From the NCBI GenBank assembly GCA_021162745.1, contig JAGGYC010000024.1, forward strand, positions 1-42,219: a stretch of DNA of 42,219 bases, given 5' to 3'. Both the position numbers and the translations under genes were made by a program. The notes under the pieces were generated by a model. That model did not search any database, was not told the DNA's origin, and saw only the letters and a program-made list of their open reading frames with translations. Source of the stretch: Desulfuromonas sp. Lineage in GTDB: Bacteria; Desulfobacterota; Desulfuromonadia; Desulfuromonadales; Desulfuromonadaceae. Below are positions 14,655 to 30,598 of the stretch, in pieces. Within the stretch, counting starts at the first letter, position 1. Each line of letters begins with the position of its first letter.

Positions 14655-15011
14655 ATGGCTTCACACAATAATGAATTATGGCAAACCATCATGTTCCTGT
14701 TTTTGAGTAAATTTGTTAAACAGGCCAACGAGCCGTTTGCTCAAAAACAGCTGATCAATGCCAAAAATGTTGAACTGGCAAGCCGTTTCGCCACAATGGT
14801 TGGCGATACAACTGCAGAAGACAAGATCAAACTGGCCCTGCTCAAAGCTCTTAAGCAACTGGAAAAATCTATGTTTATCCAGCGTCTGGACGAAACCACC
14901 CTCCAACTGAGCGACGAAGGATTAACAAAGATGCAGACAGAGCTTCAAACGGCAATGATGAAGATCGCCCGCGACTTCCCTGAATCGGTCCCTAACGAAA
15001 AAACTAATTAG
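14655..15011 (+). CDS. Hypothetical protein (118 aa)
   Basis: I do not recognise this gene. It encodes a mostly helical, soluble protein with no signal peptide, no membrane span and no cysteine. The middle (AEDKIKLALLKALKQLEKSMFIQRLDE) looks like an amphipathic helix. A short beta-like stretch (TTLQLSDEGLTKM) resembles a winged-helix wing, so a small helix-turn-helix protein is possible but not supported by a clear motif. An AGAGAAAGG sequence lies about 10 bases upstream of the ATG. It stands alone: 82 bases after yigZ and about 180 bases before the next gene. Confidence 0.6.
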   Translation: MASHNNELWQTIMFLFLSKFVKQANEPFAQKQLINAKNVELASRFATMVGDTTAEDKIKLALLKALKQLEKSMFIQRLDETTLQLSDEGLTKMQTELQTAMMKIARDFPESVPNEKTN

Positions 15012-15190
15012 CTTATCCCCCTTAAATTCTATATAAATCCACTCGGTATAAAGATCATCAGCCTGGCGAACGATTAAAAATCCGCATCGTTAATGTCGGT
15101 CTTTTATTTTGTTGGACAACGATGGCGAAAGAGCTAATATGGTGATATTGGTTATACAATTTGGATTATTAGCCTTCATCTGGGATCCCC

Positions 15191-16513
15191 ATGTCAAACT
15201 CTGTAGAGCAACCTCTTCCTCAAATCCTATGCGTCGATGATGAACAAGGGATCCTCCGTTCATTGCGTCGGGTATTGATGGATGAAGAATGTGATGTCCT
15301 TATTGCGGGGTCTGGTGCCGAAGGCCTTAAGACTCTCAATGAAGTAACTAATTTAGCCCTGATCATCTCAGATCAGCGCATGCCTGAAATGACCGGCGTC
15401 GATTTTCTGCAGCAGGCTAAAGACGTTTGTCCTGCCGCCTACCGGGTTATGCTCACCGGTTATGCCGATATTAATGCCACCATGGATGCCGTCAACAAGG
15501 GGGAAATTTGGCGTTATCTCACCAAACCCTGGGACGATGAACAACTGATTTTATTAGTGCGTGATGCCATCCGCCAGTTCAACCTTGAGAACGAAAACAA
15601 AAAACTCCAGCAGATCATTGAAAAACAAAATCAAGAACTCAAAGAGTGGAATGATCGTTTAAAACAGCGAGTGCTCGCCCAAACGAACCGGATCCGTGAA
15701 AAGCACGAGGAGCTTGCACGCGGCAACAAGCACCTCCGCGAAAGTTTTGAACAGACCCTCCATGCGTTCTCATGCCTGATAGAACTTCGCGACAAAAATC
15801 TTAAGAACCATTCCCATAGCACGGCGGCAATTTCCGAACAGGTTGCACAGAATCTTAAACTACTTCCAAAGCAGCAAAAAAACATCCGGGCAGCAGCTCT
15901 TCTACACGGGATTGGCAAGCTGGGAATTCCTGACAACATTCTCTGTAAACGAGAAGAAGATCTAACCGCCAGCGAAAAAATCATCTACAACACATTTACC
16001 GTGCGCGGACAAACAGCCATTGGCCCTATCGACGATTTACGTGAGGCAGGTATTATCTTACGTCACCTCATGGAGCGTTATGATGGAAAGGGCGGTCCCG
16101 ACCAGCTCACAGGCGACAACATCCCTATTGGTTCGCGCATTATTGCTCTTGCGGAACATATCGATCGCCACCTGAATGCCGGCGATTGCGGCACACTGGA
16201 ACAGATTATCGATGGCTGCAAGACTCAGTTCAGCAAACGTTTCGACCTAAGGCTGCTTCCTATTGTGGCCAAAGCGGCGCGCGCCTATTATTCAGAGACA
16301 GAGCAAGCTGGACTCCCCGACAGCAGACAAGAGCTTTTCCCCAAAGATCTCAGCACCGGTATGGTGGTATTACGTGACGTTTACAGTGGTACCGGCCTGC
16401 TGTTACTCAAGCAAGGTTCGGTTCTCAACGAAGAATCGATCAAATCACTCAAGCGCTACTATGACACCGACACCCCTAAACAGCCGGTGCTGGTGCTTAA
16501 AAAACATGATTGA
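15191..16513 (+). CDS. Response regulator with degenerate HD-GYP domain
   Basis: A 440-residue RpfG-like protein. An N-terminal receiver (about 10-130) has the acidic pair D16/D17, phospho-acceptor D61 (ISDQRMPEM) and KPW lysine intact. A coiled coil (about 140-190) leads to an HD-GYP-type domain (about 190-375). The catalytic HD is HG (H239-G240 in LLHGIGKLGIPD), the second histidine cluster is RHLMER where HHHER is usual, GYP is GGP, and the late AD is AE. It is therefore unlikely to hydrolyse c-di-GMP. It may bind the nucleotide or act as a phosphorylation-controlled scaffold. A C-terminal segment of about 60 residues (DLSTGMVVLRDVYSGTG) matches the tail seen after such domains. Its last codons overlap the pseudogene that follows. 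Confidence 0.88.
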   Translation: MSNSVEQPLPQILCVDDEQGILRSLRRVLMDEECDVLIAGSGAEGLKTLNEVTNLALIISDQRMPEMTGVDFLQQAKDVCPAAYRVMLTGYADINATMDAVNKGEIWRYLTKPWDDEQLILLVRDAIRQFNLENENKKLQQIIEKQNQELKEWNDRLKQRVLAQTNRIREKHEELARGNKHLRESFEQTLHAFSCLIELRDKNLKNHSHSTAAISEQVAQNLKLLPKQQKNIRAAALLHGIGKLGIPDNILCKREEDLTASEKIIYNTFTVRGQTAIGPIDDLREAGIILRHLMERYDGKGGPDQLTGDNIPIGSRIIALAEHIDRHLNAGDCGTLEQIIDGCKTQFSKRFDLRLLPIVAKAARAYYSETEQAGLPDSRQELFPKDLSTGMVVLRDVYSGTGLLLLKQGSVLNEESIKSLKRYYDTDTPKQPVLVLKKHD

Positions 16514-17177
16514 ATATGACGAATAACAACAGCGCCTGGTCCTGAAAATTGTCTGCTACGGCCCGGCCCTGTCCGGTAAAACCACCAACCTGGAAACCAC
16601 GGTACAGCAATGCACCGCCGAGCTGGAACGAACCTATCTACAACTGGTACAGAATGAAAAAATGGCCTGAGTCGGACAACTGGCCGCTGGAGTGGCCCAC
16701 AAGATCAATACTCCCATGGATTTTATCACCAGCAACCTCAGCTCACTGAAAAAGTATCTGAATCGACTGCTGCAAATGGCAACCATGCTGGAACAGACGA
16801 CCAGCCTTCTTCCTGCGGCAACTCTCAAGCCTGTCCACGAGCTGAAAAAACAGCTGAAAATCGATTTCATTCGTGAAGATGCCGAAGTCCTGATCGCCCA
16901 AAGCCTGGAAGGGGGCATGAAAACGCTGGCAAAAGATGGTATTGCGAAAGTTGTGGCCGGTGACACCACAGTTGAAGAGTTACTGCAAGTACATGACCTA
17001 CAACTACGCTACGAACGCAGCTGCACACACTGCCATCGCACCATAGCGGCCAAGTACCGGTTCTGTCCCCATTGTGGTAGGAGCAAGAAACAGACCTGCC
17101 CTCAATGTCAGACTCCACTCGAAGCAGAGTGGAATCACTGCCCAAACTGTCGGACAGCCATATTAGCAGCAAGCTAA
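16506..17177 (+). pseudogene. Chimeric remnant: MglA-type GTPase / histidine kinase / GspE tail with zinc ribbons
   Basis: One frame runs from the ATG at 16506 to the TAA at 17175 and is broken by a TAA (16524-16526) and a TGA (16668-16670). Part one (to about 16595) reads LKIVCYGPALSGKTTNL, the P-loop region of MglA-type small GTPases, and nothing after it from that family. Part two (about 16596-16910) is the coil and dimerisation domain of a histidine kinase closely resembling the two intact kinases in this window (QNEKMA-stop-VGQLAAGVAHKINTP). Its H-box is altered from HEINNP to HKINTP. Part three (about 16915-17000) matches the extreme C-terminus of GspE/PilB ATPases (KTLAKDGIAKVVAGDTTVEELL). 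Two CxxC...CxxC zinc ribbons follow. A 161-residue frame from a GTG at 16692 is intact and could still be translated. Confidence 0.65.
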
Positions 17178-17250
17178 TTTTCGGAATAGTCTGATGTAAA
17201 ATCGATAAAACAGCCCCCAAAAGCAGTAAGAAGGGGATGATGGGGACAGG

Positions 17251-18123
17251 TCAAGAGTTCATCAAGCCACCAGACGTTTCTGCAAAGACAATGGCGAACT
17301 CGCTGCCCAAGGCACTAACCGTCTCAGCATCGAATCCAAGCACAACCGCTGATGCTTCTGCAGAGAGCAGCTCAGGCTGTATGGGATAACTGCCTAACCC
17401 CATACTTTTACAGAGCTGACGGGCGAGACGCACAACACAACACAGCAGAAATGGTTCGTCCTCGCGATCTCCAGTTAATTCTGCTGTTTCAGCGTAAAAG
17501 GTGCTGGCAACGAGCATCGGCGAAAAATTCCAGTCAAACAAAATGGCCGCGCCCAAATGATTAAAAGGATACGGCAACAAGGCTTCTGAGCGCTGCTGCC
17601 TCAACTCACTGTTTTCAGTTTCCTCCAGAATACGACCATACAACTCTGGAGTATCCATGTTGCAGATGGTTTCACCGATATTACTCATCAATCCAGCCAT
17701 AAAAGCTTCTTCAGGATGTACAGCATCAATTTTCTTCGCAATAAATCGAGCTGCGATGGCAAAAGCAGCTGACTCTTCCCACAAACTTCGCTCGACCGCT
17801 CCCTGACGAACATGCATCCCTTTAACCGCCATGGCCAAAACCATATTGCGCAGGGTTTTATCACCCAACACCACCACCGCATTGTGTATGGTATTAATTT
17901 TTCTGGGAAATCCATAGAAAGAAGAATTCGCCAGTTTCAACACCCTCAAGGTGAGAGATTGATCACTGGTAATAATATCGGCAAGACGTCGAGCATCGGC
18001 ACTGCCGCTATTCATCAATTGCAATACATCGTTAGCCACAACGGTGATGCCGATCTCACAGGTCACCGATGCCAGAATCGACCGGCTATCCAACGGTATC
18101 TTTTCACAAAAAATCTCCGCCAT
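17251..18123 (-). CDS. HDOD domain protein
   Basis: A 290-residue cytoplasmic protein made almost entirely of an HDOD domain (about residues 20-215). The motifs ITSDQSLTLRVLKLANSSFYGF and the NAVVVLGDKTLRNMVLAMAV helix are visible. HDOD domains are related to HD phosphohydrolases but lack the catalytic residues and are thought to act as signalling or scaffolding modules. It has no output domain. It starts five bases after the stop of the receiver-PAS gene on the same strand, so the two form an operon and probably one pathway. Confidence 0.9.
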   Translation of the reverse strand: MAEIFCEKIPLDSRSILASVTCEIGITVVANDVLQLMNSGSADARRLADIITSDQSLTLRVLKLANSSFYGFPRKINTIHNAVVVLGDKTLRNMVLAMAVKGMHVRQGAVERSLWEESAAFAIAARFIAKKIDAVHPEEAFMAGLMSNIGETICNMDTPELYGRILEETENSELRQQRSEALLPYPFNHLGAAILFDWNFSPMLVASTFYAETAELTGDREDEPFLLCCVVRLARQLCKSMGLGSYPIQPELLSAEASAVVLGFDAETVSALGSEFAIVFAETSGGLMNS

Positions 18124-18128
18124 CCGTA

Positions 18129-18938
18129 TTAATCCCCTGTTTTTTGAATCAGAGTAATCACCATTCCCCGACTAAGGTTATTATTTAAATATTTCCCCGT
18201 TGCTGCAAACACCCGGTCATTATAGTGCACGATGTCCGTCGATTCCCCCACCAGCTTAACCTGTTCCAGAAATGCCAGCACTCCGGCAGGGAACACCTTA
18301 GATACCCGTTCTCCAAGCAATGTACCCTGTTGAGTAAAAAGCTTATTAGCACAATCATTTGCCTGAGCAATCAGGTCATCAGCATCGACACCAATCACCA
18401 CCACCGGAATACTGTCAAGAACATCTTGGGCCAACTGCAATACCTGGCTACGCATCTCTAAAGCCGAGGTACGTTCTTGAACCATCCTTTCCAGATTCGT
18501 GTTGATCTCCTTCAACTCCAGGTTACGCTGCGCAACTTCGTATGACAGGATTTCATTGTTCTGACTCAAAAAATAGGTATCAACAGCATTCGCGATGTCG
18601 ACGCGGAGCTCATCATCGTTCCATGGTTTTGGAATAAACTTATAAATATGGCCAATATTAATCGCCTCCACAACAGAAGCAGTATCAGCATAACCCGAAA
18701 GGACAATGCGAACAGTCTTAGGCCATTGGTCATGAACCTGACTAAGAAATTCCACCCCATTCATCCCCGGCATCCGATAATCAGAAACGACCACACAGAC
18801 ACCCTGTTCCTGCTCCAGAACCTGCAACCCATCAGCACCTGACTCGGCCATCAGCAACTCATAGTTATCTTCATCCATAAACAAGCGCCGCAACGCCCGC
18901 AATACATTCGGTTCATCATCGACAAATAAAATTTTCAT
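18129..18938 (-). CDS. Response regulator with PAS-like domain
   Basis: A 269-residue protein. The N-terminal receiver (about 1-125) has acidic pair D7/D8, phospho-acceptor D53 (VVSDYRMPG) and KPW lysine, all intact, in the style of RpfG/HupR receivers. A coiled coil (about 130-165) leads to a PAS-like domain (about 170-260; SIPVVVIGVDADDLIAQAND). There is no kinase, DNA-binding or nucleotide-cyclase output, so it probably relays a phosphorylation signal to its neighbour, the HDOD protein. The ATG at 18938 has GGAAGGG six bases before it. An ATG nine codons upstream with GGAGGGG is an alternative start. Confidence 0.85.
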   Translation of the reverse strand: MKILFVDDEPNVLRALRRLFMDEDNYELLMAESGADGLQVLEQEQGVCVVVSDYRMPGMNGVEFLSQVHDQWPKTVRIVLSGYADTASVVEAINIGHIYKFIPKPWNDDELRVDIANAVDTYFLSQNNEILSYEVAQRNLELKEINTNLERMVQERTSALEMRSQVLQLAQDVLDSIPVVVIGVDADDLIAQANDCANKLFTQQGTLLGERVSKVFPAGVLAFLEQVKLVGESTDIVHYNDRVFAATGKYLNNNLSRGMVITLIQKTGD

Positions 18939-19235
18939 CGACGACCCTTCCGGATAAACATTCACTACAGCCCCTCCATTCTAATGTATGGATTTTCAAC
19001 TATTGTAAACCCTAGCAGATGAGACCCTGTTTGCATAGAAAGGAATCATCGGCTCAATATTTTCACTGATTCAATTCGACGCTGCACGATTTGACAAAAA
19101 AAACACAAATCAGCAAGTCATATGAAATTCCCATTTTCAGCTACCAGTCAAGAGCCTTGCTGTTATTTAAACTATTTTGTAAACTCACTGCAATGCTGAA
19201 AATCAACCGGTCACTACCGACAAAGGGAGAAAATT

Positions 19236-20513
19236 TTGTTATCTGCATTAAAAAATGATTCCATGCGGGATCAACTACTATTAGTTGATGATAACGCTAC
19301 GAATCTGGATACTCTGTTGGCTACGCTGGGTGATCGTTACGATTTACGTGTCGCGGTTGATGGTAAAACCGCCATTAACCTCATTGACGATGGTTATCTC
19401 CCCGACCTGATTTTACTCGACGTAATGATGCCGGAAATGGATGGCTATGAGGTTTGTCGCCACCTGAAAGCAAAAAAAGAAACCTGTGATATTCCCGTCA
19501 TCTTTCTCAGTGCCTTGGACAGCAATAATGATGAAGCCAAGGGATTGGAACTTGGTGCCGTCGATTATATAACCAAACCTTTTTTTCCTGCGATTGTCTG
19601 TCAGAGGATCAACACTCACTTGGAACTGAAACATCATCGCGATAAGTTGCAGAATCTGGTGGTGGATAAAACGGATCAGTTGACCACGGCCTACAATGAT
19701 TTAAAAAAAGTCCATGACCAGATGGTCCAGCAGGAAAAAATGGCATCGCTCGGTCAGTTGGCTGCTGGTGTTGCTCATGAGATCAACAACCCTGCCGGGT
19801 TTGTCAGTAGCAACATTGTTTCATTGGAAAAATATGTTGGTCGCTTGAGTGAATGGGCGCTGTTTGTAGAACAGATTTTGCCATCGGTGGATAATCCGGA
19901 AATTGTTTCCCTACTGCAGGAAAAAAAACGCACACTGAAACTCGATTACATTTTGGAAGACGTTAAAGATTTAATCAGCGAATCAAAGGATGGCATTGAG
20001 CGAATTGCGGCGATTGTGCGCAACATGAAAAGCTTTTGTCGCGCCGAAGGTGATACCTTCAAATCGCTCAACGTGCATGACTGTCTCGACAGCGCCCTGA
20101 GCATCGCCCATAACGAGATCAAATATAAAGCCACCGTCAAAAGAGAGTACGCGGAGCTACCGCCGATTCATGTCCTGCCGCAACAACTGGGGCAGGTGTT
20201 TGTCAACCTGCTGGTCAATGCCGCTCAGGCGATTGAACAGCAGGGAACCATTACCGTTCGCACCACTCATGAAAACGAGTGGGCGGTGGTGAAGATCTGT
20301 GACACCGGCAGCGGCATCACCCCCGAGCATCTGCAACGACTGTTCGAACCTTTTTTTACCACCAAGGAGGTTGGTCGGGGAACCGGGTTAGGCTTGAGTA
20401 TCTGCGCCGACATCATCCAGAAACATCAGGGAACGATCACCGTAGACAGTACTGTTGGTGAAGGAACCTGCTTTACCATCAAGTTGCCATTGGTGGAAAG
20501 GCGTGAAGGATAG
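19236..20513 (+). CDS. Receiver-histidine kinase (soluble)
   Basis: A 425-residue cytoplasmic protein. An N-terminal receiver (about 10-130, phospho-acceptor D62 in LILLDVMMPEMDG) is followed by a short coil and a kinase core. That core has a H-box of the HEINNP type (phosphorylated His at residue 181) and a HATPase domain with N-box LVNAAQAI, CDTGSGI and GTGLGLSI. Such receiver-first kinases pass signals from an upstream kinase to a further receiver. It begins with TTG, supported by AAAGGGAGA directly upstream; an ATG nine codons later is the alternative. The kinase core is closely similar to that of the PAS kinase at 28.6 kb and to the pseudogene at 16.6 kb. Confidence 0.9.
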   Translation: MLSALKNDSMRDQLLLVDDNATNLDTLLATLGDRYDLRVAVDGKTAINLIDDGYLPDLILLDVMMPEMDGYEVCRHLKAKKETCDIPVIFLSALDSNNDEAKGLELGAVDYITKPFFPAIVCQRINTHLELKHHRDKLQNLVVDKTDQLTTAYNDLKKVHDQMVQQEKMASLGQLAAGVAHEINNPAGFVSSNIVSLEKYVGRLSEWALFVEQILPSVDNPEIVSLLQEKKRTLKLDYILEDVKDLISESKDGIERIAAIVRNMKSFCRAEGDTFKSLNVHDCLDSALSIAHNEIKYKATVKREYAELPPIHVLPQQLGQVFVNLLVNAAQAIEQQGTITVRTTHENEWAVVKICDTGSGITPEHLQRLFEPFFTTKEVGRGTGLGLSICADIIQKHQGTITVDSTVGEGTCFTIKLPLVERREG

Positions 20514-20608
20514 AGACTGCCTATACAATTTTTCTGTGTGTTCCAGCATCAAAACAGCCCCCCCCCAAAAAAACAATAAATAGCGCAAAAACAGGAAGCG
20601 AGCGCTTT

Positions 20609-23290
20609 ATGAATGTGCGACATAAAATATTCCTGCTCCTCAGCATCATTTTACTCTCTTCGATAATGCTCTACGTCTGGGTCTACGCCCGGATGGATCA
20701 CCATCGCTTAATGACACGGCTTAACCAAATGAGCAAACAGGCAGAGCATGCCTTTAGAGCCGAACAGGATTCCACCGAAATGCGCATGCTGCAAATTGCC
20801 ACTTTCGTTGCCAACGACCCCCACACCCGGCAGTTATTTTTACAGGGAAAACAGGCTGTCGAGTCGGAAGGGGGTGGCGGTGGTGGCAAACTATCTGCCC
20901 GGATCAGAAAATCGCTGTATGAACACGTACGCCACAGCCAGGAGGTGTTGGCGCAGCAGTTTAAGTTCAGGCAACTCCATTTCCATTTAGCCCCCGGTTC
21001 ACTCAGTTTTTTACGTGCCCATAAGCCGGAAAAATTCGGCGACCGCATGGACAAGATGCGTTACACCATTGTTACGGCGAATACCACACTTAAGCCCACT
21101 ACCGGCTTTGAAACAGGAAGATTGGTTTCGGGCGTCCGCGGCGTAACCCCAGTATTCGCGATAGACAGTAAAACCAATAAAAAGATCCATGTCGGCGCTC
21201 TGGAAGCCGGCACCTCCTTTACCACCAGTCTTACCCTGTTTCATAAGAACTATCCATGGTTGAACGCAGCGGTACTGCTCCACAAAAAACACCTTCAGGC
21301 CAACATCTGGCCCGAATTTCTGGACAAGCTGTTGCGAGAGCAGCCGTTTATCAGCGGTTTTCGTGTCGAAGGCACCACGTCCCCCCTGATTGATAAATTT
21401 TTAACCCGCAATGACTTTGCGAAAATTTCAACATCCTCTGATCTCCACATCTTGCGCGACGGAGAGCTACTGTACAATTTTACGTCCTTTCCCCTGCGTG
21501 ACTTCCGTGGAAAGACCGATCCACAGCAACCCGATGCCGGTCGGATCATTATTTGGCAGGATGTCAGTTCAGAGATTGCCATCCATCACCACAATGTCCG
21601 CAATTTAATCATCTATGGATTCCTGTTGTTTGCAGTCATCGAAATTCTGATGTTTTACGGCCTGCGATTGATGACTCAGCGGTTACAAAAAGAGTTGGAA
21701 CGCACCCGTAAGCTTGAAGCCGTTAGCGATAAAGCAGCCCAGGTTATTCGTCATATTGACGAGTCGATCGATCAGCCACAGCTGCAATTGCAGCAACTGA
21801 TCCAGGAGCAGGTGGATGATGCCGTCAAGGCGGTAGATGCCGGTTTTGGTTTATTTTTAAGTTCAACAGAAAAGGATGATGAGTATCGGGTACTGGCTGT
21901 CTCCAACATGATCTGGTCAAACATTGCCGGTGTGGAACGGTTTGACCAAGCACGCAACACTATGCAGCAACAGGGATATTTTCCGATAAAAATGACCGAC
22001 AACCAGTTAATAACGGTATTGCAAAGTGCGCAGCCAATAATTCTAACCCACAACGATTGCAAGGGATTTGTTGGCAACATTTTGCCGCCGGGACATCCGG
22101 CAATCAATAATCTATTGTTGGTTCCGGTGACTACCGAAAAGTACGGGTCAGGCCTGCTTGTTTTGGCAAATCGTAAAGGTGGCTTTGGCATGGATGAGCA
22201 GATCACTGCCAAGGCTTACGCTGCTGCGGCTTCATTGATTATGCATGCTGACCTGCGTGAGGTGGCCCGACTGGCGGCCGAAGAATCATCCCGCTTAAAA
22301 ACTGAGTTTTTGGACAATATAAGCCATGAGTTACGCACACCGATGAATGCGATCATGGGGTTTGGTCAGGTTCTCGCTGATAGTCAGTTGGATGATCGAC
22401 AACAAAGGTTTGTCAATAATATCAACCTCTCGTCCAAAACGATGTTGAATTTAATTAATGACATATTGTCAGTAACAAAACTTGATGATCAGCCCAAAGA
22501 AGAGCTTACCATCAAAGTGTTCAGCCCAACGCAGTTGCTAAACCGGATTAGCGATAACTTTGCCATCAAAGCTAAAGAACGGGGAGTAAAGATTAAAACT
22601 GAATTTTCAGATCAACTGCCAATATGGGTGAATAGTTATCCGGCCCAGGTGGAGCAAATACTAAATCTATTAATGGGCAATGCAATCAAATTCAGCCATG
22701 GCGGTGAGGTAACATTGGCTCTGGCATTGTCGGAAATGGATGACGATATGGCAACGCTGAAGTTTTCTATTTGCGATCAGGGGATTGGCATTGCCGAGCA
22801 ACAACAGCAACTGATTTTTCAACCATTTTATCAAATTGATGGTGCAAAAACACGCCAATACGAAGGTAGCGGATTGGGCTTAACCATTGCCAAAAAAACC
22901 TGTACCCAGCTCGGTGGCGATATAGCCGTTGAAAGTGTCATAGGTCAGGGGAGCTGCTTCACTTTTCAGTTAAAACTCCAGAGAGCAGTCCCCGCCACAG
23001 AGAACTTATCCGCGTCAGTCATGCAGGATGCCAATACCGCGTTTAAAGTCGAGACGGCAAGTGTCCTGCCCCTGGGATCGTTAAGCGAAATTGCTCAACT
23101 GTTACAGCAATTGGAAGATCCGTTAGCCAAATTACAGCCGAACCTCTGTCAAGAGATTGCCCAAACATTAACCAACAAGCAATGGCCATATCATATGGCA
23201 GAAGAGATAGAAAAACTAACGAGTTTAATCAGCAAATACCGCTTTGTTGAGGCACGCGAGGTTGTATCCAGAATAAAGGAAATGCTGTAA
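20609..23290 (+). CDS. Membrane sensor histidine kinase (Cache-like, GAF, HisKA, HATPase)
   Basis: An 893-residue inner-membrane kinase. TM1 is at about residues 5-25 and TM2 at about 331-353. Between them is a periplasmic domain of roughly 300 residues, probably Cache-like; motifs LHFHLAPGSLSFLRAHKPEKFGD and GLVSGVRG-type Gly/Arg loops are seen. A cytoplasmic GAF domain (about 380-555, ending ANRKGGFGMDEQ) precedes HisKA (H573 in NISHELRTP) and HATPase (NAIKFSHGG, DQGIGI, GSGLGLTIAK). The last 70 residues form a helical tail also present at the end of the next kinase, although no receiver or HPt lies before it here. A six-Gly run (GGGGGG) interrupts the periplasmic part. The signal is unknown. 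Confidence 0.9.
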   Translation: MNVRHKIFLLLSIILLSSIMLYVWVYARMDHHRLMTRLNQMSKQAEHAFRAEQDSTEMRMLQIATFVANDPHTRQLFLQGKQAVESEGGGGGGKLSARIRKSLYEHVRHSQEVLAQQFKFRQLHFHLAPGSLSFLRAHKPEKFGDRMDKMRYTIVTANTTLKPTTGFETGRLVSGVRGVTPVFAIDSKTNKKIHVGALEAGTSFTTSLTLFHKNYPWLNAAVLLHKKHLQANIWPEFLDKLLREQPFISGFRVEGTTSPLIDKFLTRNDFAKISTSSDLHILRDGELLYNFTSFPLRDFRGKTDPQQPDAGRIIIWQDVSSEIAIHHHNVRNLIIYGFLLFAVIEILMFYGLRLMTQRLQKELERTRKLEAVSDKAAQVIRHIDESIDQPQLQLQQLIQEQVDDAVKAVDAGFGLFLSSTEKDDEYRVLAVSNMIWSNIAGVERFDQARNTMQQQGYFPIKMTDNQLITVLQSAQPIILTHNDCKGFVGNILPPGHPAINNLLLVPVTTEKYGSGLLVLANRKGGFGMDEQITAKAYAAAASLIMHADLREVARLAAEESSRLKTEFLDNISHELRTPMNAIMGFGQVLADSQLDDRQQRFVNNINLSSKTMLNLINDILSVTKLDDQPKEELTIKVFSPTQLLNRISDNFAIKAKERGVKIKTEFSDQLPIWVNSYPAQVEQILNLLMGNAIKFSHGGEVTLALALSEMDDDMATLKFSICDQGIGIAEQQQQLIFQPFYQIDGAKTRQYEGSGLGLTIAKKTCTQLGGDIAVESVIGQGSCFTFQLKLQRAVPATENLSASVMQDANTAFKVETASVLPLGSLSEIAQLLQQLEDPLAKLQPNLCQEIAQTLTNKQWPYHMAEEIEKLTSLISKYRFVEAREVVSRIKEML

Positions 23291-23332
23291 TAGGTGAACA
23301 TTACCAGCGGATTGACCAAAGGAATTGTTGAC

Positions 23333-27364
<4,032 letters not shown>

Positions 27365-27433
27365 TGTTTTAGCTGTGTCAAAACATGCCGGCATTCATGA
27401 ATACATGGTTGACGTTGGAAGGAATCGTTGAAA

Positions 27434-28507
27434 ATGGACTATACTCCGAAAAAGCAGATACTCATTGTTGATGATAATGAGTTCAACATCGATACACTCA
27501 TTGCAACTCTGGGTGATGAATATGAGCTGCGCGTCGCCATCGATGGCGATATGACCTTGAAATTACTTGCGCATGATGATCTGCCGGATCTTATTCTGCT
27601 AGATGTGATGATGCCTGAGATGGATGGTTATGAGGTATGCCGCCGTATAAAAGAGTGTGAAAGAACACGGGGGATCCGAATCATATTTCTGACAGCGTTA
27701 ACTGACATTGCTGATCAGGAAAAGGGACTTAGCCTGGGGGCTGAAGATTATATCACCAAGCCATTTAATCCGGCGATTGTCAGGGCGCGGGTACGTACCC
27801 AGTTGAAGCTTAAACAATATCGCGATCATCTCGAAGATCTGGTGACAAAAAAAACAGAGCAATTACTGCATGCCCAAGAGGCCATTATTGCCAGTATGGC
27901 GATAATGGCCGAACATCGTGATCCTGAAACTGGGGCTCATATCCAGAGGACCAAATCATATGTTCGGGTGTTGGCACAGGCCATGGCAGCGCAGATGCCG
28001 GATATTTTAACTGAACAGACTATTGATATGCTTTACCGGGCCGCGCCCCTGCATGATATCGGCAAAGTAGCGATTCCAGATGAAATACTACTGAAACCTG
28101 GCCGCTTAACGGCTGAAGAGGCGACCATTATGCAAACCCATACCAGCTGTGGCGCTGATACTATTCGTCGTACAGAAGAGATTGTTGGCAGTAACCAGTT
28201 GCTGCATCTGGCAATGGAAATTGCCGAATACCATCACGAAAAATGGGATGGCAGCGGTTATCCGCACGGCCTTGAGGGCGACAATATCCCCTTGTCTGCC
28301 CGATTGATGACCATTGCCGATGTTTATGATGCCCTTATCAGCATACGTCCTTATAAACCTGCTCTCAGTCATGCGGAAACGGTAAAAATAATTCTCGAAG
28401 GTGATGCTTTTACCAGACCGGAACATTTTGACCCACAGATACTGCGCTGCTTTGAGCGTATCCACGACCAATTTGATCATATCGCGACGGCATTCAGCGA
28501 TCGCTAG
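27434..28507 (+). CDS. Response regulator with HD-GYP c-di-GMP phosphodiesterase domain
   Basis: A 357-residue soluble protein. The receiver (about 8-125) has phospho-acceptor D57 (LILLDVMMPEMDG) and KPF lysine. The HD-GYP domain (about 150-345) is complete: H207-D208 in LHDIGKVAIPDE, the EYHHEKWDG cluster, GYP at 275-277, and IADVYDAL. It should hydrolyse c-di-GMP to pGpG/GMP when its receiver is phosphorylated. It lies directly downstream of the hybrid kinase and is the likely output of that relay. A TTG two codons upstream (27428) is an alternative start; the ATG has AAGGA ten bases before it. Confidence 0.93.
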   Translation: MDYTPKKQILIVDDNEFNIDTLIATLGDEYELRVAIDGDMTLKLLAHDDLPDLILLDVMMPEMDGYEVCRRIKECERTRGIRIIFLTALTDIADQEKGLSLGAEDYITKPFNPAIVRARVRTQLKLKQYRDHLEDLVTKKTEQLLHAQEAIIASMAIMAEHRDPETGAHIQRTKSYVRVLAQAMAAQMPDILTEQTIDMLYRAAPLHDIGKVAIPDEILLKPGRLTAEEATIMQTHTSCGADTIRRTEEIVGSNQLLHLAMEIAEYHHEKWDGSGYPHGLEGDNIPLSARLMTIADVYDALISIRPYKPALSHAETVKIILEGDAFTRPEHFDPQILRCFERIHDQFDHIATAFSDR

Positions 28508-28558
28508 AACAACGGTCTCATTGCTTAATGGAGGGGCATAGAGTCCCCTTCACTCAGG

Positions 28559-30598
28559 ATGAAAGGTGATGATGTGACTATGCAACAACAAAACAATCTT
28601 TTTGAAGTGTTATTTGGTAAATTTCCAACGGAGATATCAGAACGGGAGAAAAATGCGCTGATAAAAAACTACAACCAGCACAGTCACGAATTTAGAATCT
28701 GGCGAGATCAGTCCCACAACAATAAGTTTGTCTCAGAATCCTGTTTCGCCCTCACAGGCTATTCAGTGCGTGAATTCCTTGACGACAATGAACTGCTTGA
28801 AAAGCTTATTTCTCCAAACGACATCCCCTTGTGGTATGAAAGCCACCAGACAAGCACACATGAATCGATCCAGATTCGCTTGATTAAACGAAATGGTGAG
28901 ATCGCCTGGTTTGAACACAACTGCAGTCCCCTTATTGAGGAAAACTCTGAAGTGAACGGATATATCGGCAATTTTGTCGATATCACAGACCTCAAAAAAG
29001 CCCAAACCTCAGCTCAAAAGCTTGCCATAGCAGCGGAACAGCATGCTTCAGGTATGGCCATTACAGATCAACACGGCGCCGTCGAATATGCCAACCCCGC
29101 CTTTAACGATATGCACCATGAAACCCTGAAAATTCAACCGGGAGATACATGGGCGTTATTAGCTCCGGGAACGCCAAAAGCACAGGAGATCAAAGAAACG
29201 GTTCTGAAGAAACAGCAATGGAGCGAAAACATACGCATCCCGAACTATCAAGGGGCAGATCATTGGCAAACGATCAAAATCTCCGCTGTTCTAGATGAAC
29301 AAGGCCAGATCATCAATTATCTGGCGTTTATAATTGATATCACCCAGAACATGCAAGACAAACAACATGCCCTTGAACAACACCGCAAATTACAACACCT
29401 GTTCAAAGTAGTGGAAGCAGGAAAACAGGAGTGGGAACACTCACTGGACTGCATTAACAATGCGGTGATCTTGACTGATCATAACGGCATCATCAAGCGG
29501 GTCAATAGTGCCATTACACAACTGCTTAATATCAATATTGCAGACATCCTCGGCCAAGACTGGCGTTCTTTACTGCCTGACGAATTGAAAAATCAAATTG
29601 ATCTACCCGTCGATGGTGAATATTACGATCAGATACGGGACAAATGGTTACGTTATAAGACGTTCCCGTTTAATAGTGAATCTCTGAGCACCCAGGTGAG
29701 TCAAGTAATTACCCTGCACGACATCACCGAATCACAGCGCATCACCAATGAACTCGCCAGTGCCTATGAACACCAGAAAGCAACTCAAAGCCAACTAGTC
29801 CATCAGGAAAAAATGGCATCCATTGGTCAACTGGCCGCTGGAGTAGCTCACGAGATCAACAATCCGACGGGGTTTATCACCAGCAATCTGGTCAGCTTGG
29901 GTAAGTACACGACAAAGCTCAATGAACACATCGCCTTTCTCGAACAATCGCTTCAACAAATAGGCAACACTGAATTATTAACGTCAATGCAACAACATCG
30001 CCAAAAACTTAAGCTATCTTTTATACAAGAAGACATCAAAGATTTGATTGAGGAGTCACTGGAAGGGGCCGAACGGATAAAAATCATCGTCAATAATTTA
30101 AAAAGCTTTTCCCGCGTCGATGATACCGGTTTTTTCACCAGTAATTTGCACGAATGTCTGGACGCAGCGCTGAATATCGGCTGGAATGAAATTAAATATA
30201 AAGCAACCGTTACCAAGGATTTTCAACCCATCCCAGATGTTTACTGTTCGGCACAACAGCTTAACCAGGTGTTTCTCAACCTGCTGGTCAATGCAGCTCA
30301 GGCATTGCAGGAGCAAGGTGAAATCAACATCCAAACCATCACCCAGGAGCCTTGGGTAATAATCAAAATCAGCGATAACGGCAGTGGCATTGCCCCGGAA
30401 CACCTTTCGCGAATTTTTGAACCATTTTTCACCACAAAAGATGTCGGCAAAGGTACCGGGCTCGGGTTGAGTATCTGCTACGACATCATACAGCAACACC
30501 ATGGTGAGATTGATGTCGAAAGTACCCTCGGCCAAGGTACGACCTTTATCATTAAACTCCCCATTGCGGCTTCGCCGGGCGACGAAGAGAATGCTTGA
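28559..30598 (+). CDS. PAS-domain histidine kinase (soluble)
   Basis: A 679-residue cytoplasmic kinase without membrane segments. Three PAS-like domains (about 35-150, 155-265 and 295-395) are followed by a coil and a kinase core. The core has phospho-acceptor H431 (GVAHEINNP) and a HATPase domain with LVNAAQAL, SDNGSGI and GTGLGLSI. It shares its kinase core with the receiver-kinase at 19.2 kb. The start is uncertain: ATG 28559 lacks a binding site, while GTG 28574 (AAAGG seven bases before) and ATG 28580 are possible. It has no receiver, so its target is elsewhere, possibly one of the receiver proteins in this island. It ends five bases before a strong terminator. Confidence 0.9.
   Translation: MKGDDVTMQQQNNLFEVLFGKFPTEISEREKNALIKNYNQHSHEFRIWRDQSHNNKFVSESCFALTGYSVREFLDDNELLEKLISPNDIPLWYESHQTSTHESIQIRLIKRNGEIAWFEHNCSPLIEENSEVNGYIGNFVDITDLKKAQTSAQKLAIAAEQHASGMAITDQHGAVEYANPAFNDMHHETLKIQPGDTWALLAPGTPKAQEIKETVLKKQQWSENIRIPNYQGADHWQTIKISAVLDEQGQIINYLAFIIDITQNMQDKQHALEQHRKLQHLFKVVEAGKQEWEHSLDCINNAVILTDHNGIIKRVNSAITQLLNINIADILGQDWRSLLPDELKNQIDLPVDGEYYDQIRDKWLRYKTFPFNSESLSTQVSQVITLHDITESQRITNELASAYEHQKATQSQLVHQEKMASIGQLAAGVAHEINNPTGFITSNLVSLGKYTTKLNEHIAFLEQSLQQIGNTELLTSMQQHRQKLKLSFIQEDIKDLIEESLEGAERIKIIVNNLKSFSRVDDTGFFTSNLHECLDAALNIGWNEIKYKATVTKDFQPIPDVYCSAQQLNQVFLNLLVNAAQALQEQGEINIQTITQEPWVIIKISDNGSGIAPEHLSRIFEPFFTTKDVGKGTGLGLSICYDIIQQHHGEIDVESTLGQGTTFIIKLPIAASPGDEENA

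What the first reader, a model, noticed from the sequence alone, without database searches (positions are those of the whole stretch)
16506..17177. In-frame three-part chimera: GTPase P-loop, histidine kinase coil and GspE tail with zinc ribbons
Seen: a single frame carries an MglA-type P-loop (GPALSGKTT), then a histidine kinase dimerisation region close to the two intact kinases nearby, then a GspE-type C-terminus and two zinc ribbons, with only two stop codons. Both junctions keep the frame. Two random deletions would both keep frame about one time in nine. Inference: either serial in-frame deletions of a signalling/motility cluster, or a real fusion gene that decayed recently. The 161-residue part after the TGA could still be made.
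Basis: partly seen in the sequence, partly recalled or inferred. Interest (0 to 1): 0.72.

Follow-up and report, generated by a model that had tools for sequence, protein, structure and literature searches.

The report
Shrunken remnant of a signalling operon
What looks like a three-part fusion gene is most likely the recently decayed leftover of three neighbouring signalling genes, cut down by two internal deletions to about 15% of their length; it is an unusually legible fossil of an ordinary kind of event.

Summary
In detail: one frame (16506-17177) carries an MglA-type start and P-loop, a histidine-kinase dimerisation stretch and a GspE C-terminus with double zinc ribbon, broken by TAA 16524 and TGA 16668. 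It is best read as the remnant of a conserved operon (MglA GTPase, histidine kinase, receiver/MshEN/GspE ATPase with zinc ribbons). Twelve of 13 fetched order-relative loci with that ATPase hold the three genes separately in this order; in 11 of the 12 all three frames are uninterrupted. Measured on 15 operons, about 1.08 kb and 2.67 kb are missing. The joins fall at codons that both parent genes have in relatives; exact shared bases are only partly borne out. The kinase part groups with operon kinases (96/85), not with the two nearby kinases, though other scores are equivocal. Loss looks recent: two nonsense changes, no frameshift, near-normal conservation except a slightly weaker GspE tail. 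None of 13 other family genomes has the tail; no fused gene was found. Serial deletion is supported, a genuine fusion gene is not. Interest low.

The parts
15191..16513 (+). Intact upstream gene: receiver plus HD-domain response regulator (NCBIfam NF053512 'NosR family' type), the surviving gene of the operon context
   Evidence: Pfam Response_reg and HD_5; NF053512 436.7 bits against cut-off 400; strong homologue (over 250 bits) in 7 of the 12 operon-bearing order loci
16506..16592 (+). MglA remnant: start codon to P-loop and 'TTNL' (29 codons incl. one stop); ATG overlaps the stop of the upstream gene by 8 nt
   Evidence: 62-79% identity to the MglA start in 12 relatives; operon MglA query hits only residues 1-34 here; 13 of 13 near-invariant columns kept
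16524..16526 (+). Internal stop TAA
16587..16592 (+). Junction 1: AACCTG (codons N-L). N-L codons stand at both parental sites in relatives; AACCTG exactly is seen on the MglA side in 4 of 19 loci and on the kinase side in 2 of 10, in no locus on both
   Evidence: codon-level comparison
16593..16913 (+). Histidine-kinase remnant: end of the coil, H-box (H kept, next E changed to K) and dimerisation helices
   Evidence: groups with operon kinases 96/85 in the tree; coil score +10.4, above all 101 other kinases (maximum 6.9); rest of the piece equivocal
16668..16670 (+). Internal stop TGA
16911..16916 (+). Junction 2: GGGGGC, a G-rich stretch between kinase 'EG(A)' and GspE 'GGM'; relative L033 has GGGGC on both sides
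   Evidence: codon-level comparison
16914..17177 (+). GspE/PilB-like ATPase remnant: end of the ATPase plus double zinc ribbon, all 8 cysteines kept (17022-17150)
   Evidence: 43-53% identity to GspE-DZR C-termini in 13 relatives; DZR E=4.5e-10; cysteine columns
16692..17177 (+). Open 161-aa ORF (GTG) downstream of the TGA; weak ribosome-binding site
   Evidence: anti-SD duplex -3.2 kcal/mol
16917..17177 (+). Open 86-aa ORF (ATG): GspE tail and double zinc ribbon; the better-initiated candidate product
   Evidence: anti-SD duplex -6.0 kcal/mol
17251..18123 (-). Convergent HDOD gene; in 5 of 6 inspected family relatives it directly follows the regulator gene, so the remnant is missing there
   Evidence: Pfam HDOD; synteny

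Best explanation
The stretch is a recent fossil of an operon MglA GTPase -> histidine kinase -> receiver/MshEN/GspE ATPase with double zinc ribbon, downstream of an HD-type response regulator. Two deletions (about 1.08 kb from the MglA P-loop into the kinase coil, about 2.67 kb from the kinase dimerisation domain into the GspE C-terminus), each probably by slippage or end-joining at short shared sequences, left the ends of three genes joined in one frame; two nonsense changes came before or after them. Shown: segment identities, order, position, separate genes in relatives, missing lengths. Inferred: the deletion mechanism, the order of events, the recency. The remnant most likely makes nothing useful. 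The intact system would be a kinase- and GTPase-controlled GspE/PilB-like motor (inference from domains only).
For: 12 of 13 fetched order-relative loci with the zinc-ribbon ATPase carry MglA, kinase and GspE-DZR as separate collinear genes, uninterrupted in 11 of 12; 12 of 80 named-genome loci carry the collinear trio (one of them seems to be the same contig as one of the 13). The MglA start overlaps the regulator's stop, and the two are similarly close in at least 6 of 12 order loci. Kinase piece in the operon-kinase set, 96/85; window kinases in another, 99/93. Missing lengths agree over 15 operons: 1039-1229 and 2647-2917 bp. 49 of 54 near-invariant columns kept; MglA and kinase pieces as conserved as expected from the neighbouring intact gene (mean residuals +0.3 and -0.7). 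One copy in the genome, no other operon-type MglA.
Against: No genome of the family searched holds the intact operon (13 of 13 others lack the tail), so the parental bases at the joins can only be inferred from distant relatives; AACCTG is in no relative found on both sides. For the kinase piece two profile HMMs tie (114.0 v 113.2), and its summed per-site score (-27.9) is below all 12 operon kinases (minimum -12.3), though above 99 of 101 others. A recent loss requires several independent complete losses in sister species, or a late gain by transfer.
Confidence: 0.91

Rival explanations
1. A genuine three-part fusion gene that was functional as a fusion and decayed recently.
For: Both joins keep the frame; all eight zinc-ligand cysteines are kept.
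Against: None in viral contigs. In relatives the genes are separate. The MglA piece is 29 codons of a G domain; no HATPase_c or T2SSE domain is hit. Frame keeping is about 1 in 9 by chance and more likely if the shared codons are in phase, as here.
Confidence: 0.03
2. The deletions destroyed the operon, but the downstream piece (86 aa from ATG 16917, or 161 aa from GTG 16692) is still made as a small zinc-ribbon protein and kept by selection.
For: No stop in 168 codons after the TGA, both internal stops in the first quarter (noticed after the fact); 8 of 8 cysteines kept; among the six in-frame starts after the TGA, ATG 16917 has the best ribosome-binding site (-6.0 kcal/mol), formed at junction 2.
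Against: The GspE tail is the one piece less conserved than expected (mean residual -3.7; nine intact loci -1.4 to +2.4). With about 0.08 substitutions per site an open frame needs no selection. No orthologue in the family to test.
Confidence: 0.06
3. Assembly artefact: the stops are base errors and the deletions misjoins.
For: 163-contig assembly; reads not available.
Against: Joins of about 4-6 shared bases are too short to mislead an assembler (general knowledge); base errors at the stops would not account for about 3.75 kb of missing sequence. The same genome shows no other operon-type MglA and no other match to the tail.
Confidence: 0.03

Closest known systems
MglA / histidine kinase / receiver-MshEN-GspE-DZR operon of Desulfuromonadales and other phyla (found here; no paper found)
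   Same: Same gene order and strand, segment-by-segment homology, and in 7 of 12 order loci the same strong regulator homologue nearby
   Different: The window copy has lost about 3.75 of about 4.4 kb, is joined into one frame and has two stops
MglA gliding-motility GTPases (PDB 6h17, 3t12; operon MglA of L035 E=7.7e-45 and 4e-43)
   Same: N-terminal strand and P-loop GPALSGKTTNL
   Different: Only 29 of about 228 residues remain in the window
Bacterial pseudogenes formed by deletion between short direct repeats (recalled; no paper read on it)
   Same: Internal deletions with similar sequence at the joins, plus nonsense changes
   Different: Three successive genes end up in one frame, which makes it look like a fusion

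Membership tests
Remnant of the MglA-HK-GspE/DZR operon | Same order and strand of the three gene parts | tested here: met
   12 of 13 order loci, 12 of 80 named-genome loci
Remnant of the MglA-HK-GspE/DZR operon | Position directly after the RR-HD gene | tested here: met
   strong regulator homologue in 7 of 12 order loci, weaker 129-136-bit hits in L031, L036, L037, none listed in L030 and L032; start/stop spacing
Remnant of the MglA-HK-GspE/DZR operon | Kinase part orthologous to the operon kinase, not to a neighbour paralogue | tested here: met
   tree 96/85; HMM tie and intermediate per-site score are weaker
Remnant of the MglA-HK-GspE/DZR operon | Joins at shared short sequences | tested here: inconclusive
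   N-L codons and G-rich stretch on both sides in relatives; exact AACCTG never on both sides of one locus; own parent sequence lost
Functional fusion gene | Stop-free fused frame in at least one genome | tested here: not met
Functional fusion gene | Complete catalytic domains | tested here: not met
   MglA piece 29 codons; no HATPase_c, no T2SSE hit
Functional small zinc-ribbon protein | Purifying selection or expression of the 86/161-aa ORF | not testable with these tools
   no orthologue in 13 other family genomes
Pseudogene | Internal stops and loss of conserved domains | tested here: met
   TAA 16524, TGA 16668, about 3.75 kb missing

The most novel reading that the evidence does not exclude
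Junction 2 placed a G-rich stretch just before ATG 16917, so the deletion that killed the operon also gave birth to a translatable 86-residue protein (GspE tail plus double zinc ribbon) that may now be expressed with the upstream regulator gene: a new small gene made by operon collapse.
Probability: 0.05. Interest if true: 0.5.

Novelty: new member of a known kind. Interest (0 to 1): 0.2.

Why it matters
It shows how an apparent multi-domain fusion can arise by operon decay, a trap for automatic inference of function from domain fusions. The parent operon, which pairs an MglA GTPase, a kinase and a receiver-bearing GspE/PilB-like ATPase, occurs across several phyla, and I found no description of it in three full-text searches; that is the more useful lead.

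Tried and rejected
Rejected: origin of the kinase part from the two nearby kinases by recombination. The 79% DNA match to 29792-29889 covers the H-box region, and matches of 70-86% identity to that part of the query occur in many relatives; the tree separates them.

Led nowhere: HMM comparison of operon against other kinases (tie); viral-contig search (21 candidate stretches, none confirmed); promoter/terminator scan of 15000-17400 (4 promoter-like sites against 2.8 expected, 0 terminator-like against 2.6). Literature: 0 papers; 5 papers listed, of which I read only passages of PMC4316618 (it describes conserved neighbourhoods for MglA groups 2 and 3; none of the passages shown has this layout); 1 and 10 papers listed, none read.

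Limits of the counts. The kinase tree used 44 of 101 non-operon kinases, chosen by score with the window's two included; the row L057 in the remnant's set was labelled 'other' because its operon is split. One search used 11 loci (9 for the GspE tail). In one search single intact proteins also miss near-invariant columns (up to 3), so the remnant's losses per piece (0, 2, 3) are not outside the intact range. Not every 'intact' operon is clean: the kinase of L036 is interrupted by one in-frame stop, and the GspE of L086 matches in three pieces in different frames. Confidence in the best explanation went from 0.92 to 0.91 for the partly unsupported shared bases. One search was an incomplete submission, not filed.

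Full report
WHAT IS THERE. The other five frames hold 6 to 10 stops each. The stretch occurs once in the genome; the only other DNA matches are 98- and 64-base pieces of the kinase region in two intact kinases of the same contig.

WHAT THE PIECES ARE. The C-terminal piece matches the end of large GspE/PilB-like ATPases in 13 of 97 other genomes of the first tail search (E 3.2e-24 to 1.1e-20); 10 further genomes have only weaker matches (E 7.5e-10 or higher). In the two such proteins scanned, from L035 and L056, Pfam finds a receiver domain, MshEN, T2SSE and a double zinc ribbon. I fetched the 13 loci. In 12 of 13 an MglA-family gene starts with residues 62-79% identical to the remnant (not L041), and in the same 12 a histidine kinase lies between MglA and the ATPase on the same strand. 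All three frames are uninterrupted in 11 of these 12; in L036 the kinase has one in-frame stop. The GTPase is MglA by its match to solved MglA chains (E=7.7e-45). A collinear trio was also counted in 12 of 80 named-genome loci fetched with the regulator gene as bait, among them Thermodesulfovibrionales, Nitrospirae, Desulfosarcina, Desulforapulum and beta/gamma-proteobacterial records; the zinc-ribbon tail was matched in 7 of these 12.

POSITION. In the window the MglA ATG overlaps the stop of the HD-type regulator gene (15191-16513) by 8 bases. A strong homologue of this regulator (over 250 bits) is present in 7 of the 12 order loci, a weaker one (129-136 bits) in L031, L036 and L037, and none was listed in L030 and L032. 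In L029, L030, L033, L035, L036 and L039 the upstream frame ends within about ten bases of the MglA start; in L034 the gap is about 170 bases. So the remnant sits where the operon should be.

THE JOINS. First join: relatives read GKTTNL-LQLH in MglA and ENLE(T)RVQ(E/Q)RTAEL in the kinase, and the window reads GKTTNLETTVQQCTAEL. The MglA side has N-L in 19 of 19 loci read, the kinase side in 6 of the 10 found. The exact letters AACCTG occur on the MglA side in 4 of 19 and on the kinase side in 2 of 10, never both in one locus. Second join: kinase EG(A) and GspE (G)GM; L033 has GGGGC on both sides. Deletion at short shared sequences is thus likely but inferred. Measured on 15 operons the missing lengths are 1039-1229 bp (median 1079) and 2647-2917 bp (median 2674).

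WHICH KINASE. In a 107-column tree with 23 operon kinases and 44 of 101 others, the remnant lies in a starred set of 16 rows with 14 operon kinases and the kinase of one split operon (96/85); the window's two intact kinases lie in another starred set (99/93). Against this: two profile HMMs tie, and the summed per-site score lies between the classes (-27.9; operon minimum -12.3; 99 of 101 others lower); only the coil scores clearly operon-like.

HOW OLD. Two nonsense changes imply about 0.08 substitutions per site if neutral (95% Poisson about 0.009-0.30). Of 54 columns near-invariant in intact proteins 49 are kept (13 of 13, 17 of 19, 19 of 22); lost are, among others, the E after the phospho-accepting H and an N of the H-box. 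Intact proteins left out one at a time also lose up to 3 per piece, so this is light decay at most. All eight cysteines of the zinc ribbons are kept. Compared with the intact regulator next door, the MglA and kinase pieces are as conserved as intact genes would be (mean residuals +0.3 and -0.7 points), the GspE tail slightly less (-3.7; intact range -1.4 to +2.4). The operon was therefore probably under normal constraint for most of its history in this lineage and died recently.

RELATIVES. None of the 13 other genomes of the family matches the tail. Eleven of the 13 have an MglA only 41-44% identical to the operon type and two have none; none of the listed GspE/PilB matches in the family covers both the receiver and the zinc-ribbon part. 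At six inspected sites the regulator gene is followed within 2-54 bp by a convergent gene, HDOD in five and a response regulator in one; the other seven genomes' sites were not inspected. A recent death here therefore means independent complete losses in sister lineages, or a late gain by transfer; I cannot decide between these.

IS THERE A FUSED GENE ELSEWHERE. I read the three longest partial matches (G006, G093, G122): ordinary kinases followed by their ATPase domain, without a double zinc ribbon. Viral contigs gave nothing.

CAN ANYTHING STILL BE MADE. The 161-aa ORF starts at a GTG with a weak ribosome-binding site (-3.2 kcal/mol); an in-frame ATG at 16917 (86 aa) has -6.0, within the range of 19 assumed gene starts of this window (1.7 to -12.0). 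Expression cannot be tested here. I hold a living small gene possible but unlikely.

VERDICT. Observation confirmed; the serial-deletion reading is supported and the fusion-gene reading is not. It is an ordinary pseudogenisation with an unusually legible result.

Noticed in passing
L029-L040, L056, L064, L066, L067, L069, L077, L086, L104, L107, L109, L112: A conserved gene trio MglA GTPase, histidine kinase, GspE-type ATPase (with zinc-ribbon tail in the order relatives and in 7 of 12 named-genome loci, without a matched tail in the five beta/gamma records) spans several phyla; no paper found. The domains suggest a kinase- and GTPase-controlled pilus/secretion-type motor.
   Followed up: partly
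window 15191-16513; L042-L047: The HD-type regulator has a degenerate HD-GYP motif in all 7 family members read (LLHG.GK, RH[LI][LM]E, G[GST]P), while the 8 operon-bearing order relatives in the alignment keep LLHD and HHE. Two operon-bearing gamma records (L066, L069) are degenerate too.
   Followed up: partly
window 16917-17177: The best ribosome-binding site among the in-frame starts of the remnant was formed at the second join, in front of an 86-codon open frame with a double zinc ribbon.
   Followed up: partly
L036:7211-8647 (- strand): The operon kinase of this relative (G023) is interrupted by one in-frame stop: a second, independent sign of decay of the operon, or a sequencing error.
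   Followed up: no
window 15191-30598: The contig keeps a dense signalling cluster (regulators, HDOD protein, several kinases) around the remnant.
   Followed up: no
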